From assembly GCA_002783405.1 (NCBI GenBank), contig PFGG01000011.1:69434-133433 (forward strand): a DNA stretch of 64,000 nucleotides, given 5' to 3'. Positions within the stretch are counted from its first letter, which is position 1. Every line of letters starts with the position of its first letter. The DNA is from a bacterium (Candidatus Blackallbacteria) CG13_big_fil_rev_8_21_14_2_50_49_14 (GTDB taxonomy: Bacteria > Cyanobacteriota > Sericytochromatia > UBA7694). Made by a program: the position numbers and the translations under genes. Below the pieces are notes generated by a model that made no database searches, was not told where the DNA came from, and was given only the letters and a program-made list of their open reading frames with translations. Shown piece by piece: positions 44,204 through 61,578 of the stretch.

Positions 44204-44230
44204 ATTTCAGCCCACTTTCAGCTTATTCAA

Positions 44231-44257
44231 AAAACTGCCCATAGGCAGTTTTTTTTT
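44231..44257 (+). terminator. Rho-independent terminator
   Basis: Stem AAAACTGCC / GGCAGTTTT (44231-44239 with 44244-44252), four-base loop, then an unbroken T run to 44257. It ends the NHL lipoprotein transcript. Confidence 0.9.
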
Positions 44258-44326: not shown

Positions 44327-45331
44327 TTGAAAAAACAGTCCATTTTTCTGTCTTTCCTCTTACTCGTTTTTAGTGTTTTCCTGAGTCATGCAGCTGTTGC
44401 ACGCGCGGTTCCCAATTTGCCTGCAGATTTACAAAGCTCCCCCCAGAAAGTTCATGTCGGTTTTTATTTAAATCGGGTCGTCAATCTGGATCTCAAACAA
44501 AATACCTATTGGATGGATTTTTATATCTGGTTTCGTTGGAAGGGGCCCATCGACCCCACTGAGACCTATGAAATCATGAATGCCTATGAAAAATGGGGTT
44601 CTACGATTGTTGCTGAAAATGAAGAAGTGCGTATTTTACCCGATGGTTATAAATACAAAGAATTGCACATGGAATATGAGCTGCACTGCCCTTTAAATTT
44701 CAGCTCCTATCCCCTGGATGAACAAACTCTGACCATTCAGCTGGAAGACAAATCCCACCCTGAAAAGGTGATTCAATACATTCCAGACACCATCGACTCT
44801 AAAGTCAGCCCTGAACTTTTTATTCAAGGCTGGAAACCGATTCGTTTTGATGTGATTGGCTCATCACATCTCTATGACACGCGTTTTGGTCAACCTGCGA
44901 TGAAAAAAAATACCTATAGCCGCGTCAGTTTCCGTTTGTTTATCTCAAGACACCCCCGCCATCTGCATCTCTTTAAGCTCTTTCTCCCCGTTTTAATCAT
45001 CCTGGTGATGGTTGGCGTCATCTTTTTTATCCCGATTTCTTTTTTCGAATCGCGGGTAGAAATTGCAGTAACAGGACTCTTAAGCTTGATTGCCTTACAA
45101 ATGGTGCTGAATGAGACCCTTCCCCCTGTGGGCTACCTCACCTTAACCGACAGGGTCTATTACCTTGCCTATTTTTCGGTGATGTGTGCCCTGATTGAAA
45201 CCGTATGGGTTTACTTCAGCTTTAAACGCGATGTCCGTCAATCCCGCCGGATCGATCGCCGAAGCGCAATGGTCATGCTCTTTCTCATGCCTGTTCTGTT
45301 AGTTTTGTTTTTTACCGTTTGGAGAGGCTAA
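44327..45331 (+). CDS. Prokaryotic pentameric ligand-gated ion channel (GLIC/ELIC-type)
   Basis: 334 residues. Signal peptide (cut near residue 26) followed by an extracellular beta domain: VHVGFYLNRVVNLDLKQNTYWMDFYIWFRW, then NFSSYPLDEQTLTIQLED, the prokaryotic form of the Cys-loop region (P129, D131). Four helices follow: M1 214-236, M2 241-265, M3 272-298, M4 312-332. M2 has Glu at its cytoplasmic end (FFESRVEIAVTGLL) and reaches NETLPPVGY, close to the GLIC pattern, which suggests a cation channel. The M3-M4 loop is very short, as in all prokaryotic members. The TTG start has only a distant AGAGG. The ligand is unknown. Confidence 0.92.
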   Translation: MKKQSIFLSFLLLVFSVFLSHAAVARAVPNLPADLQSSPQKVHVGFYLNRVVNLDLKQNTYWMDFYIWFRWKGPIDPTETYEIMNAYEKWGSTIVAENEEVRILPDGYKYKELHMEYELHCPLNFSSYPLDEQTLTIQLEDKSHPEKVIQYIPDTIDSKVSPELFIQGWKPIRFDVIGSSHLYDTRFGQPAMKKNTYSRVSFRLFISRHPRHLHLFKLFLPVLIILVMVGVIFFIPISFFESRVEIAVTGLLSLIALQMVLNETLPPVGYLTLTDRVYYLAYFSVMCALIETVWVYFSFKRDVRQSRRIDRRSAMVMLFLMPVLLVLFFTVWRG

Positions 45332-45401
45332 AAACAGGTTCCTGCGCTATCCTGATTCCAAACCATAGCACTCAGGGGCAATTGGAGTTAAACTGTATAA
45401 G

Positions 45402-45433
45402 AGCTGTCATATGAATTTTGCGACAGCTTTTTT
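45402..45433 (+). terminator. Probable terminator after the channel gene
   Basis: AGCTGTC (45402-45408) pairs with GACAGCT (45422-45428) across a 13-base loop and is followed by T residues to 45433. The loop is long, so it is less certain than the others. The rest of the 216-base gap up to tig holds a second small hairpin (CGGTC / GACCG near 45490) and no gene. Confidence 0.6.
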
Positions 45434-45547: not shown

Positions 45548-46930
45548 GTGAAAGTTACTGTCGAAAAGCAAGAAGGAAATAAAATCCATCTGGAAGTTGC
45601 ATTAGAGGGCAAACCTCTTGAAGAAGCCTACCATCAAGCCCTCAATTATTATGGCCGGAGCCTGAAATTGAAAGGTTTCCGCAAGGGGAAAGTCCCCCTG
45701 AATCTGGTAGAGCAAAATCTGGATACAGATCAGGTCAAGCGCGATTTATTTCAGCGCGCCATGGGTGATTCCTATCATCAAGCCCTGGCTGAACAACAGA
45801 TTGAATCAATTGCTGAACCCGTCATCGAGGCCGTTCAGGCCGAAATCGGCAAAGATTTTATCTACAAGGCCATTGTTGAAGTCCGTCCTGAAGTCGTTTT
45901 GGGTGATTATAAGGGCTTAACTGCCGCGATTCCTTCCGAAGAAACCCTGACTGACGAGAAAATCGACGAACAGATCCAACACCTGCGCCGGGAACATGCT
46001 GTTCTCCTGCCCGTTGATAATCGTCCGGCCCAATTGGGTGACTTAATGACCTTGCATGTCGATGCATCCATTGAAGGTGAATCCGTTGATCTGGGTGAAT
46101 CCAAAGATATGACCCTGGAACTACGTGAAGACAGCTTTGTAAAAGGCTTCTCCGATCATGTGGTGGGACTGAATGTCGATGAGAAAAAATCTTTTGATTT
46201 GACCTTCCCAGAAGATTATTACGTCGAAGATCTGCGTGGAAAGCAAATTCACTTTGATGTGCATGTGCATGAAATCAAAGAAGTTGAATTGCCTGAAGTG
46301 GATGATGACTTCGCCAGCACCGTTCACAGCGAGCTTGAAAATCTGGAAGAGCTCAATGAGCGGATTCGCAAAGAACTTTCTGAAGCCATTGAAGAACAAA
46401 ACGAAGTTCAGAAACAACAAAAATTGTTGGACAAAGTGGTTTCCAATGCGCAGGTTGAAATCCCTGACTCCATGCTGCAACGTGAACTCTATGCCATGTG
46501 GCAAATGAGTGAAGGTTCTCAATTGGCCAACGCCAAAGTGGGCGAACAAACTCTGCGCGCATCTCTGATGCACTGGATGCAACGTGAAGAACTAAAAGAA
46601 ACTGCACGTCAGCGCATTAAAACGACCCTGGTTCTGGGTGCCATTGCCCGTGAAGAAGGCATCAGCATCAGCCAGGAAGAAGTAGATGCTGAGATTCAGG
46701 AACTGGCTGAAACGCATGAAATTCCTGTTGAGCAGGTCAAAGCCCAACTTGAACAGGAAAATCGCATGGTTGCTCTGATGGATGAACTCTTGAGCTTCAA
46801 GATCATCGATTGGGTCATGGAAAACAACGATATCGTTGTCTCTGAAGAACTGAGCCAGGCAGAAGAAGCGGCGAAAACAGCCGATGCTCCTGCTGAAAGC
46901 CAAGAAGCTCCTGTAGAGCAGTCTGTCTAA
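45548..46930 (+). CDS. tig: Trigger factor
   Basis: 460 residues. Ribosome-bound chaperone and prolyl isomerase. The N-terminal ribosome-binding domain starts MKVTVEKQEGNKIHLEV and has the contact motif as LKGFRKGKVPLNLV. The FKBP-like domain spans about 155-240 (GDLMTLHVDASIEGE to FDVHVHEIKEV). The C-terminal helical cradle follows, with an acidic Ala/Glu/Pro tail. GTG start with CGGAGGAAAC in front. No clpP or clpX follows, unlike in many genomes. Confidence 0.96.
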   Translation: MKVTVEKQEGNKIHLEVALEGKPLEEAYHQALNYYGRSLKLKGFRKGKVPLNLVEQNLDTDQVKRDLFQRAMGDSYHQALAEQQIESIAEPVIEAVQAEIGKDFIYKAIVEVRPEVVLGDYKGLTAAIPSEETLTDEKIDEQIQHLRREHAVLLPVDNRPAQLGDLMTLHVDASIEGESVDLGESKDMTLELREDSFVKGFSDHVVGLNVDEKKSFDLTFPEDYYVEDLRGKQIHFDVHVHEIKEVELPEVDDDFASTVHSELENLEELNERIRKELSEAIEEQNEVQKQQKLLDKVVSNAQVEIPDSMLQRELYAMWQMSEGSQLANAKVGEQTLRASLMHWMQREELKETARQRIKTTLVLGAIAREEGISISQEEVDAEIQELAETHEIPVEQVKAQLEQENRMVALMDELLSFKIIDWVMENNDIVVSEELSQAEEAAKTADAPAESQEAPVEQSV

Positions 46931-60333: not shown

Positions 60334-61578
60334 ATGGCTATTCGTATTAACTCGAATATTGCATCTCTCAATGCCCAGCGCAATCTGGGGCTCAGCAATC
60401 AACAGTTGAACAAAACCCTCGAAAGACTTTCTTCAGGCTTGAGAATCAATCGTGCAGCAGATGATGCTGCGGGTTTGGCCGTTTCAGAAAAGCTGCGCAC
60501 TCAAATCAAGGGCTTTACACAAGCGATTGCAAACTCACAAGACGCAGTGAACCTCATTGCCACTGCAGAATCCGGCATTGATCAAACCTCTCAGATTTTG
60601 CAACGTATCCGTGAGCTGTCCATTCAAGCAGCTGGCGATACCTTGGTTAATTCAGACCGCTCCAAAATTCAGGAAGAAATTAACCAATTGCGTGTGGAAC
60701 TTACCCGTATCGCAGAAACAACTGAATTCAATACCCGTAAATTATTGGATGGCTCGATCGCACAGGCCACATTTGCTGAAGATGCCTCTGCTTCAATCAA
60801 GCAAAATGTACGTGTCGGTGATACTTCAGTTACTGTACCTGTTCTTAATGATTTCATTAGTTCAGCAAATGTTTCTGTCACGGGCGCAACCCTCGATACA
60901 GCTTTCCAAATTAAATTTGTTTCCTGGCAAACAAATGCAACCTCTCCTGTCAGCGTAGCCTTGGAAGTACGCTCGTCTTTGGATGGGGTCATTACCACCA
61001 TTAATTTGGGTGCCACCGCAACCAACCCCACCTCCATCAACCTGACAGTGAGCGGTACCACCATTGGTTCCATTGCTATTAACGCCAGCAATATTTCATT
61101 GAATGATATTGGCAAAACAGCCTTGGTACAAATTACGGCTCGCCGTGCAGCTGTCACCACCGATCAGGGCTTAACCTTCCACGTCGGCGCCAATGAAGGC
61201 CAGTTCCTGAAAATGGGTGTTCAAGATCTGCGCGGAAAAGCATTGCGTCTTGAAACCATCAATATTCTTGGCACAAATGATGAAGACAGCCGCGTAAAAG
61301 CCCAAAATGCAATTGGAGCAGTGGATACGGCTCTCGATTACGTCAATACGGTTCGCTCACGCCTTGGGGCGTTCCAGAATCGTGTTGAATACACGATTCA
61401 GAATCTCCAGGTATCTCGCGAGAACCTGACAGCTTCTGAATCACGCATTCGTGACGCAGATATCGCCATGGAGACTGCCAATCTGACCCGGGCACAAATT
61501 TTGGTTCAGGCCGGCACCGCAGTTCTGACCCAAGCCAATATTGCTCCACAGTCAGCACTCAGTCTGCTCGGTCGTTAA
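60334..61578 (+). CDS. fliC: Flagellin
   Basis: 414 residues. The N-terminal D0/D1 region is classic (MAIRINSNIASLNAQRNLG, then LSSGLRINRAADDAAGLA), as is the C-terminal one (SRLGAFQNRVEYTIQNL, ending LTQANIAPQSALSLLGR). The variable middle (about 145-290) is beta-rich, Thr/Ser/Val-rich and without Cys. It is exported through the flagellum, so it has no signal peptide. AAGGAGGA lies 10-11 bases before the ATG. A strong terminator follows. Only one flagellin gene is in the window. Confidence 0.98.
   Translation: MAIRINSNIASLNAQRNLGLSNQQLNKTLERLSSGLRINRAADDAAGLAVSEKLRTQIKGFTQAIANSQDAVNLIATAESGIDQTSQILQRIRELSIQAAGDTLVNSDRSKIQEEINQLRVELTRIAETTEFNTRKLLDGSIAQATFAEDASASIKQNVRVGDTSVTVPVLNDFISSANVSVTGATLDTAFQIKFVSWQTNATSPVSVALEVRSSLDGVITTINLGATATNPTSINLTVSGTTIGSIAINASNISLNDIGKTALVQITARRAAVTTDQGLTFHVGANEGQFLKMGVQDLRGKALRLETINILGTNDEDSRVKAQNAIGAVDTALDYVNTVRSRLGAFQNRVEYTIQNLQVSRENLTASESRIRDADIAMETANLTRAQILVQAGTAVLTQANIAPQSALSLLGR

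What the first reader, a model, noticed from the sequence alone, without database searches (positions are those of the whole stretch)
44327..45331. Prokaryotic pentameric ligand-gated ion channel
The whole protein fits the GLIC/ELIC class: extracellular beta domain with SYPLDEQ, four helices, Glu at the inner end of M2 and NETLPPVGY after it. Such channels are rare and patchy in bacteria and only a few are characterised. It is a single-gene unit between two terminators, so it may answer a periplasmic ligand or pH.
Basis: partly seen in the sequence, partly recalled or inferred. Interest (0 to 1): 0.55.

Follow-up and report, generated by a model that had tools for sequence, protein, structure and literature searches.

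The report
Bacterial relative of neurotransmitter receptor channels
This gene encodes a bacterial cousin of the nerve-receptor ion channels, most likely a cation channel opened by a small amine-like molecule outside the cell; the family is known, but this branch looks unstudied and its pore carries an uncommon extra ring of acidic residues.

Summary
[quoted passage not shown] Z about 25). It is a single-gene unit between two terminator-like hairpins. The nearest named genomes are Candidatus Sericytochromatia; 4 of 5 genomes of its family carry the gene, in each just upstream of tig. It lies outside the GLIC/ELIC group, in a broad, mostly bacterial branch for which I saw no solved structure (best 60 of 228 rows). 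Both glutamates that bind the agonist amine in ELIC, and three aromatic pocket positions, are kept; GLIC lacks both glutamates. I therefore favour a small amine or amino acid, not protons, as agonist (inferred). M2 has Glu at -2' and 20', predicting cation selectivity, and also at 2', normally a polar layer; 10 of 120 aligned rows, its own family's four included, have acid there. M2 is 91-100% identical to that of its family, the extracellular domain 52-77%. The second ring may raise divalent permeability (inferred). New member of a known kind.

The parts
44327..45331 (+). pLGIC gene, 334 aa, TTG start
44327..44404 (+). probable signal peptide (residues 1-26; cleavage judged by eye)
   Evidence: sequence; first ten residues modelled (25-34) have mean pLDDT 55
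44516..44539 (+). beta-2 motif DFYIWFRW (residues 64-71); Tyr66 = ELIC Tyr38, Trp68 = ELIC Val40, Arg70 = ELIC Gln42 by alignment
   Evidence: this motif was the scan pattern, so its conservation there is biased
44570..44572 (+). Glu82, aligned with ELIC Glu77 (amine-binding)
44708..44725 (+). Pro-loop YPLDEQ (residues 128-133)
   Evidence: motif F/YPxD in PMC4795631
44744..44746 (+). Glu140, aligned with ELIC Glu131 (amine-binding)
   Evidence: alignment
44873..44890 (+). loop C motif YDTRFG (residues 183-188); Tyr183 aligned with ELIC Tyr174
44915..44917 (+). Tyr197, aligned with ELIC Phe187
44957..45028 (+). helix M1 (residues 211-234)
45044..45118 (+). helix M2, pore lining (residues 240-264): E-2', R0', E2', T6', L9', A13', M16', E20'
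45047..45049 (+). Glu241 = -2' (inner acidic ring)
45059..45061 (+). Glu245 = 2' (second, uncommon acidic ring)
45113..45115 (+). Glu263 = 20' (outer acidic ring)
45143..45229 (+). helix M3 (residues 273-301)
45233..45325 (+). helix M4 (residues 303-333); almost no M3-M4 loop
44229..44254 (+). terminator-like hairpin upstream
   Evidence: z -4.5
45399..45431 (+). terminator-like hairpin downstream
   Evidence: z -3.8
45548..46930 (+). tig (trigger factor), conserved downstream neighbour, beyond the hairpin

Best explanation
A ligand-gated cation channel of the inner membrane, probably a homopentamer. The signal peptide sends the beta domain to the periplasm. A small organic ligand, most likely a primary amine or amino acid, binds between subunits. 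There Glu82 and Glu140 hold its amino group, and Tyr66, Tyr183 and Tyr197 form aromatic walls, as at the ELIC site. The Pro-loop/pre-M1 interface passes the change to M2 and the Leu 9' / Met 16' gates open. Glu rings at -2', 2' and 20' admit cations, probably favouring divalents such as Ca2+. The resulting influx or depolarisation may report a nutrient or signal to a cell that has flagellin and chemoreceptor genes. Shown here: fold, signature residues, pocket and pore residues, conservation, synteny, presence of flagellin and chemoreceptor genes. Inferred: pentamer, ligand class, ion preference, gating steps, cellular role.
For: Family: Pfam LBD, PDB matches and fold. Pocket: at ELIC Glu77 and Glu131 the window and 3 of 3 named family members have E; among 80 other rows from 77 named loci (near-duplicates included) E in 66 and 76; at Tyr174 Y in 67 (F in 3), at Phe187 Y in 72 and F in 4 of 80; GLIC has R and I at the two Glu positions; same result at these places under three MAFFT modes. 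In ELIC, mutants of Glu77, Glu131, Phe187, Phe133, Tyr174 and Ile79 gave no response to cysteamine (PMC3119659 section 7). Pore: E-2', E2', E20' in 4 of 4 family sequences. In nicotinic receptors more negative charge at 20' goes with higher Ca2+ permeability and removing the -1' ring abolishes it (PMC5447003 passages); the inner ring governs conductance and divalent interaction in ELIC (PMC3119659 passages). M2 plus loop is 29-32 of 32 identical to the window in the family against 52-77% in the ECD. One copy in the genome, so a homomer is simplest. 12 MCPsignal matches (11 over cut-off) and 4 flagellin matches in the genome.
Against: ELIC Phe133 is Lys142 here and ELIC Asn103 is Glu112, so the pocket is not the same; one family member (L031) has F, not Y, at Tyr183. 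In 19 other rows of phylum genomes, found without the pattern scan, the two Glu are kept in only 7 and 10. The branch is not close to ELIC in the tree, so the shared residues may be ancestral without a shared ligand. Glu at 2' next to Glu at -2' could bind divalents tightly and block rather than conduct. No Na+/Ca2+ exchanger of PF01699 in the genome (the same search rings in 11 of 14 controls), which gives no support to a Ca2+ cycle. No neighbouring gene points to a ligand or to chemotaxis. ELIC Tyr174 and Phe187 are at 175 and 188 of the chain I used; I assumed this one-residue shift.
Confidence: 0.6

Rival explanations
1. It is a proton-gated cation channel like GLIC: periplasmic acidification, perhaps through the many Glu/Asp residues, opens the pore; the organic-ligand pocket is vestigial.
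For: GLIC constructs and GLIC chimeras are the best-scoring solved relatives of the profile (60 of 228 rows seen), and GLIC is from Gloeobacter, a cyanobacterium (recalled). Many acidic residues in both domains.
Against: A clade with GLIC is rejected (p-AU 0.009; the test shares any long-branch pull of the model). The two amine-site glutamates are kept here at a site where GLIC has R and I, and in 66 and 76 of 80 other named rows, which a vestigial site would not explain.
Confidence: 0.15
2. It is mainly a divalent-cation sensor like DeCLIC: periplasmic Ca2+ keeps it shut and Ca2+ loss opens it.
For: [quoted passage not shown] DeCLIC is also said there to have two acidic rings at the inner mouth. 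This channel is rich in acidic residues.
Against: It lacks an extra N-terminal domain. I could not align DeCLIC itself, so neither its calcium site nor its pore rings were compared. The conserved organic-ligand pocket would have no role.
Confidence: 0.15
3. It is a pLGIC-like protein that does not conduct by itself, for example one subunit of a heteromer or a scaffold.
For: Neighbouring pairs of pLGIC genes from different sub-branches exist in other genomes (L052, L056, L059), so heteromers are plausible in the family.
Against: Only one copy found in this genome. The pore helix is the most conserved part in the family. Purifying selection: dN 0.17-0.36 with dS saturated in two pairs and 2.4 in one (NG86; the YN00 estimates failed).
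Confidence: 0.05

Closest known systems
ELIC (Dickeya/Erwinia; opened by primary amines including GABA)
   Same: Fold; amine-site Glu77 and Glu131 and the aromatic Tyr38, Tyr174, Phe187 positions kept.
   Different: ELIC sits with GLIC in the ECD tree, apart from this branch. Phe133 and Asn103 positions differ (K142, E112). WFRW in beta-2 and YxTxFG in loop C are absent in ELIC.
GLIC (Gloeobacter; proton-gated)
   Same: Fold, size, Pro-loop, M2 spacing with Glu at -2'.
   Different: 21-23% identity in structural alignment (GLIC rows); 2' is T in GLIC and E here; both amine-site Glu absent in GLIC; clade with GLIC rejected.
DeCLIC (Desulfofustis; opened by Ca2+ loss)
   Same: pLGIC family; said to have two acidic rings at the inner mouth (PMC9897478 passage).
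   Different: DeCLIC has a large N-terminal domain; none here. Ring positions not compared.
Nicotinic acetylcholine receptors
   Same: Acidic inner ring and acidic 20' ring, which bear on Ca2+ permeability there (PMC5447003 passages).
   Different: No Cys-loop pair (one Cys before the Pro-loop, none after), almost no M3-M4 loop, inner ring at -2' rather than -1', acid also at 2'.

Membership tests
pLGIC (Pro-loop receptor) superfamily | Ligand-binding beta domain profile (PF02931) over its cut-off | tested here: met
   E 2.8e-10, 40.5 bits against 26
pLGIC (Pro-loop receptor) superfamily | Transmembrane profile (PF02932) over its cut-off | tested here: inconclusive
   E 3.8e-4 but 21.2 bits against a cut-off of 28.1; 22.1 bits in the genome search
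pLGIC (Pro-loop receptor) superfamily | F/YPxD motif, beta-9 Trp, pre-M1 Arg, M1 Pro, M2-M3 Pro, basic 0' | tested here: met
   YPLD, Trp169, ISR, FLP, LPP and R0' present; features from PMC4795631, parts 1 and 2 of 3 of its Results
pLGIC (Pro-loop receptor) superfamily | Beta-sandwich plus four helices, pLGIC fold | tested here: met
   pLDDT 93.7, four helices in model residues 187-309; Foldseek best E 6e-23; Z 25.0-25.9 over 282-293 residues in the 50 rows shown
pLGIC (Pro-loop receptor) superfamily | Pentamer with a gated pore | not testable with these tools
   only single chains can be predicted; no electrophysiology
GLIC orthologue | Same clade as GLIC in a tree | tested here: not met
   GLIC with L012 at 99*; joint clade with the window group rejected, p-AU 0.009
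ELIC-type amine-gated channel | Glu77 and Glu131 (amine) conserved | tested here: met
   Glu82 and Glu140 under three alignments
ELIC-type amine-gated channel | Full ligand pocket (also Phe133, Asn103) | tested here: not met
   Lys142 and Glu112 at these places
ELIC-type amine-gated channel | Opens with primary amines | not testable with these tools
   needs electrophysiology
Cation-selective pLGIC | Acidic ring at the inner mouth of M2 | tested here: met
   E-2'; role of the ring in PMC3119659 passages
Eukaryotic Cys-loop receptor | Two Cys flanking the Pro-loop | tested here: not met
   one Cys before the loop, none after it

The most novel reading that the evidence does not exclude
The stacked Glu rings at -2' and 2', with Glu at 20', make a divalent-selective filter, so that this is a truly Ca2+-selective pentameric ligand-gated channel, gated by an amine or amino acid, and gives this bacterium transmitter-like Ca2+ signalling.
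Probability: 0.18. Interest if true: 0.65.

Novelty: new member of a known kind. Interest (0 to 1): 0.36.

Why it matters
The bacterial pLGICs that turned up here with solved structures or functional papers are few (GLIC, ELIC, sTeLIC, DeCLIC; names partly recalled). This protein stands for a large branch (WFRW / YxTxFG type) for which I saw no solved structure. Its pocket predicts an amine or amino acid ligand. Its double inner acidic ring gives a natural test of how ring charge at 2' sets divalent permeability in a pore otherwise like the nicotinic one. If Ca2+-selective, it would show ligand-driven Ca2+ entry in a non-photosynthetic sister group of the cyanobacteria (group nature recalled).

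Tried and rejected
GLIC orthology: rejected. A conserved partner gene: none seen. In the all-against-all comparison of flanking ORFs (25 largest clusters printed) I saw only lineage-level synteny: tig, lpxL-like and wzy-like genes in the 3 named family loci, and neighbours shared among 5 Azospirillum loci. By eye, the larger clusters are the pLGIC itself, shadow ORFs on the other frames, and ABC ATPases or kinases scattered over loci. Phage carriage: 48 stretches matched in viral contigs, none a relative. Plasmids: 9 records, all under 60% identity. Recent gain: GC 0.437 against 0.468 for the window and synteny in 4 genomes do not support it.

Tree weaknesses: the backbone of the branch is unresolved (support 1 at the midpoint split). 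The row '6cdu' is a chimera with a GABA-A transmembrane part; it was cut to its extracellular part and dropped. Rows dropped: one search used 85 of the 105 rows (near-identical rows and one short row left out); one search used 75 (long branches and the chimera left out). The first 2' count (14 of 105) includes rows with a gap inside M2 and is replaced (10 of 120 with an ungapped M2; 10 of 130 rows were gapped, five of them with a two-residue gap at -1'/0' and perhaps acid near 2'). Comparison with the pore residues of DeCLIC, sTeLIC and ELIC was not done, because their M2 was not printed. That DeCLIC and sTeLIC are not among the 60 rows shown says only that GLIC scores higher. The first ORF listing of minus-strand loci read the wrong strand and was redone.

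In print: a search for 'Sericytochromatia' with 'ion channel' gave 2 papers, neither about this by title and start of abstract. Acid at 2' was sought only indirectly, since the search tool takes no primes; I claim nothing about its absence from print.

Full report
WHAT IS THERE. The frame 44327-45331 on the plus strand is open from a TTG start and codes for 334 residues. A stop lies two codons upstream, so no longer frame is possible, and the relative L003 (the same contig as L030) has the same TAA-Ala-TTG-AAA-AAA context. Pfam recognises the ligand-binding domain above its cut-off (E 2.8e-10) and the transmembrane domain below it (E 3.8e-4, 21.2 bits against 28.1). In a sequence search of the PDB the 60 rows shown of 259 are pLGICs, best E 2e-17. 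The signature residues listed for the superfamily in PMC4795631 (parts 1 and 2 of 3 of its Results seen) are present: YPLD, beta-9 Trp, pre-M1 Arg, M1 Pro, M2-M3 Pro, and Arg 0'. The flanking Cys pair of animal receptors is absent.

FOLD. With an alignment of 48 rows (chosen by me from the 117 rows, without near-duplicates, the more distant rows and the two plasmid rows) AlphaFold2 gives pLDDT 93.7 and pTM 0.85, with a beta sandwich and helices at model residues 187-210, 216-240, 249-277 and 279-309 (add 24 for protein numbering). Foldseek's best PDB match is a GLIC-GABA-A chimera (E 6e-23). VIA-align gives Z 25.0-25.9 to GluCl, GLIC, GABA-A and glycine receptor chains in the 50 rows shown, with rmsd 2.3-4.0 over 282-293 residues. 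A pentamer could not be modelled.

UNIT AND NEIGHBOURS. Hairpins with T-runs lie at 44229-44254 (z -4.5) and 45399-45431 (z -3.8), so the gene appears to stand alone, with tig starting at 45548. The scan itself found 5 terminator-like sites against 3.0 in shuffles, and its promoter-like sites are below the shuffle mean, so no promoter is claimed. In the three named relatives of the same family (L029, L030, L031) the pLGIC is also followed by tig, then the lipid A acyltransferase-like and O-antigen ligase-like genes. I saw no neighbour that recurs across the wider branch.

HOST AND DISTRIBUTION. The genome (5.65 Mb, 96% complete) has one copy by three searches. The same-genus contig of G001 has the same length (166702) as that of L029, 'Candidatus Sericytochromatia bacterium isolate MAG_89', so the window is taken as Sericytochromatia (inference). 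In its family 4 of 5 genomes have the gene; the fifth is 73% complete. A profile search finds pLGICs of some kind in 8 of 18 genomes of the class at E 1e-6 and in 55 of 386 of the phylum at E 1e-8. In the collection of 84,980 species, 158 of 181 stretches matching one pattern encode relatives, of which the best 80 were kept; their titles name Pseudomonadota, Myxococcota-type, Nitrosocaldus, Bathyarchaeota and other genomes. None was found in viral contigs.

WHERE IT SITS IN THE FAMILY. In the tree of 85 rows the four Sericytochromatia sequences form one clade (100*), while GLIC groups with a row of the same phylum, L012 (99*). With the extracellular domain alone, GLIC and ELIC fall in one set of five rows (96, with L008, L012, L023), away from the window. 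In a 75-row tree without the chimera and the longest branches, holding the window group together with GLIC and L012 costs 32 log units, p-AU 0.009; this test shares any long-branch pull of the model, and I named the group after seeing the first tree. The backbone of the wider branch is unresolved. So it is a pLGIC of another branch, marked by WFRW in beta-2 and YxTxFG in loop C. The first motif was part of the scan pattern and its conservation is therefore biased; the second was not (Y 81%, T 81%, G 94% of 48 rows). The Bathyarchaeota and Nitrosocaldus rows lack the loop C motif. With a profile of this branch the 60 best of 228 PDB rows are GLIC constructs or chimeras, so I saw no solved member of the branch.

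LIGAND SITE. ELIC's agonist site, as described in PMC3119659 (section 7 read), has Glu77 and Glu131 at the amino group of the agonist and Phe133, Tyr174, Phe187 and Tyr38 around it. I aligned the extracellular domain of the 6cdu chain with all rows. That this part is ELIC is recalled, but its residues at 19, 38, 40, 77, 79, 91, 103, 131 and 133 all agree with the paper's letters. The window has Glu82, Glu140, Tyr183, Tyr197 and Tyr66 at the places of Glu77, Glu131, Tyr174, Phe187 and Tyr38, the same in three MAFFT modes. Across 80 other rows of 77 named loci (near-duplicates included) the two Glu are kept in 66 and 76, Tyr at the 174 place in 67, Tyr or Phe at the 187 place in 76. GLIC has R, I, F, E and F at the five places. 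Against the reading, Phe133 is Lys142 and Asn103 is Glu112 here, L031 has Phe at the 174 place, the 174/187 numbering is shifted by one in the chain used, and in 19 other phylum rows, found without the pattern scan, the Glu are kept in only 7 and 10. I conclude that an amine-bearing ligand is more likely than protons, with Arg70 and Thr185 as possible carboxylate partners; this last point is inference from animal GABA and glycine receptors (recalled).

PORE. M2 reads, from -2': E S R V E I A V T G L L S L I A L Q M V L N E T L P. The spacing to the M2-M3 Pro is that of GLIC without a gap, so Glu241, Glu245 and Glu263 are -2', 2' and 20'. ELIC's paper describes the inner half of cation-selective pores as two polar layers and one negatively charged layer (passages); here the 2' layer is acidic. 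Among 120 rows with an ungapped M2 (of 130 distinct rows that met my coverage filter), 10 have Asp or Glu at 2': the 4 Sericytochromatia, 3 of a myxobacterial-type group, 2 Anaerolineae without Arg 0', and 1 row of a phylum genome; 6 have acid at -2', 2' and 20' together. These lie in separate clades of the tree, so the ring probably arose more than once (not tested on the tree). Within the family M2 plus loop is 32, 29 and 29 of 32 identical to the window, while the extracellular domain is 77, 53 and 52%. Charge at 20' and at the inner ring bears on Ca2+ permeability in nicotinic receptors (PMC5447003 passages). DeCLIC is said to have two acidic rings at the inner mouth (PMC9897478 passage); I could not see at which positions, so a double ring may have a precedent.

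CELLULAR ROLE. Tasneem and co-workers proposed that bacterial members act as chemoreceptors (PMC549065 passages). This genome has 12 MCPsignal matches, 11 over the cut-off, and 4 flagellin matches, one of them in the window at 60346-60756, so a link to motility is possible. No Na+/Ca2+ exchanger of PF01699 was found. No gene next to the channel supports either role.

VERDICT. It is a new member of a known kind, in a branch for which I saw no solved structure, with a testable ligand class and an uncommon second acidic ring in the pore.

Noticed in passing
L017 and L024 (unnamed phylum genome G115, contig 91): Two neighbouring ORFs of 1188 and 1185 aa. The first has, by Pfam, an N-terminal Peripla_BP_6 and a C-terminal SBP_bac_1, with a pLGIC unit between them by my profile (Pfam does not report it): two periplasmic binding proteins on one channel. 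The second was not scanned. N-terminal PBP-I fusions are in print (PMC549065 passages); I saw no C-terminal one in those passages.
   Followed up: partly
L009, L015, L017, L024, L149: pLGICs in long frames (751-1188 aa) whose M2 aligns with a two-residue gap at -1'/0', so the usual Arg 0' is missing.
   Followed up: no
L052, L056, L059 (Myxococcota-type); L010/L021 (G130); L022/L025 (G192): Two pLGIC genes side by side, in the first three loci from different sub-branches of the tree; possible heteromeric channels.
   Followed up: no
L119, L120, L121, L122, L123 (other genomes of the class): pLGIC-bearing ORFs of 612-726 aa. Of two scanned, L119 has a Cache/PDC-type sensor domain over cut-off and L120 a weak dCache_1 match below cut-off. 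In L120 and L123 a small 320-324 aa pLGIC lies on the same contig piece.
   Followed up: partly
L098 and L105 (Anaerolineae): pLGIC units at the end of ORFs of 826 and 771 aa, with Asp 2' but Met instead of Arg at 0'.
   Followed up: no
window 60346-60756: A flagellin N-terminal domain match on the plus strand, about 15 kb from the channel.
   Followed up: no
L034: Record titled Klebsiella pneumoniae MAG, but its channel is 254 of 311 identical to that of the Deltaproteobacteria record L033 and groups with myxobacterial-type rows; the label is probably wrong.
   Followed up: partly
L027, L055, L057, L074, L077 (Azospirillum): The channel gene shares the same neighbours in five loci; from memory some look like type VI secretion parts, not tested.
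   Followed up: no
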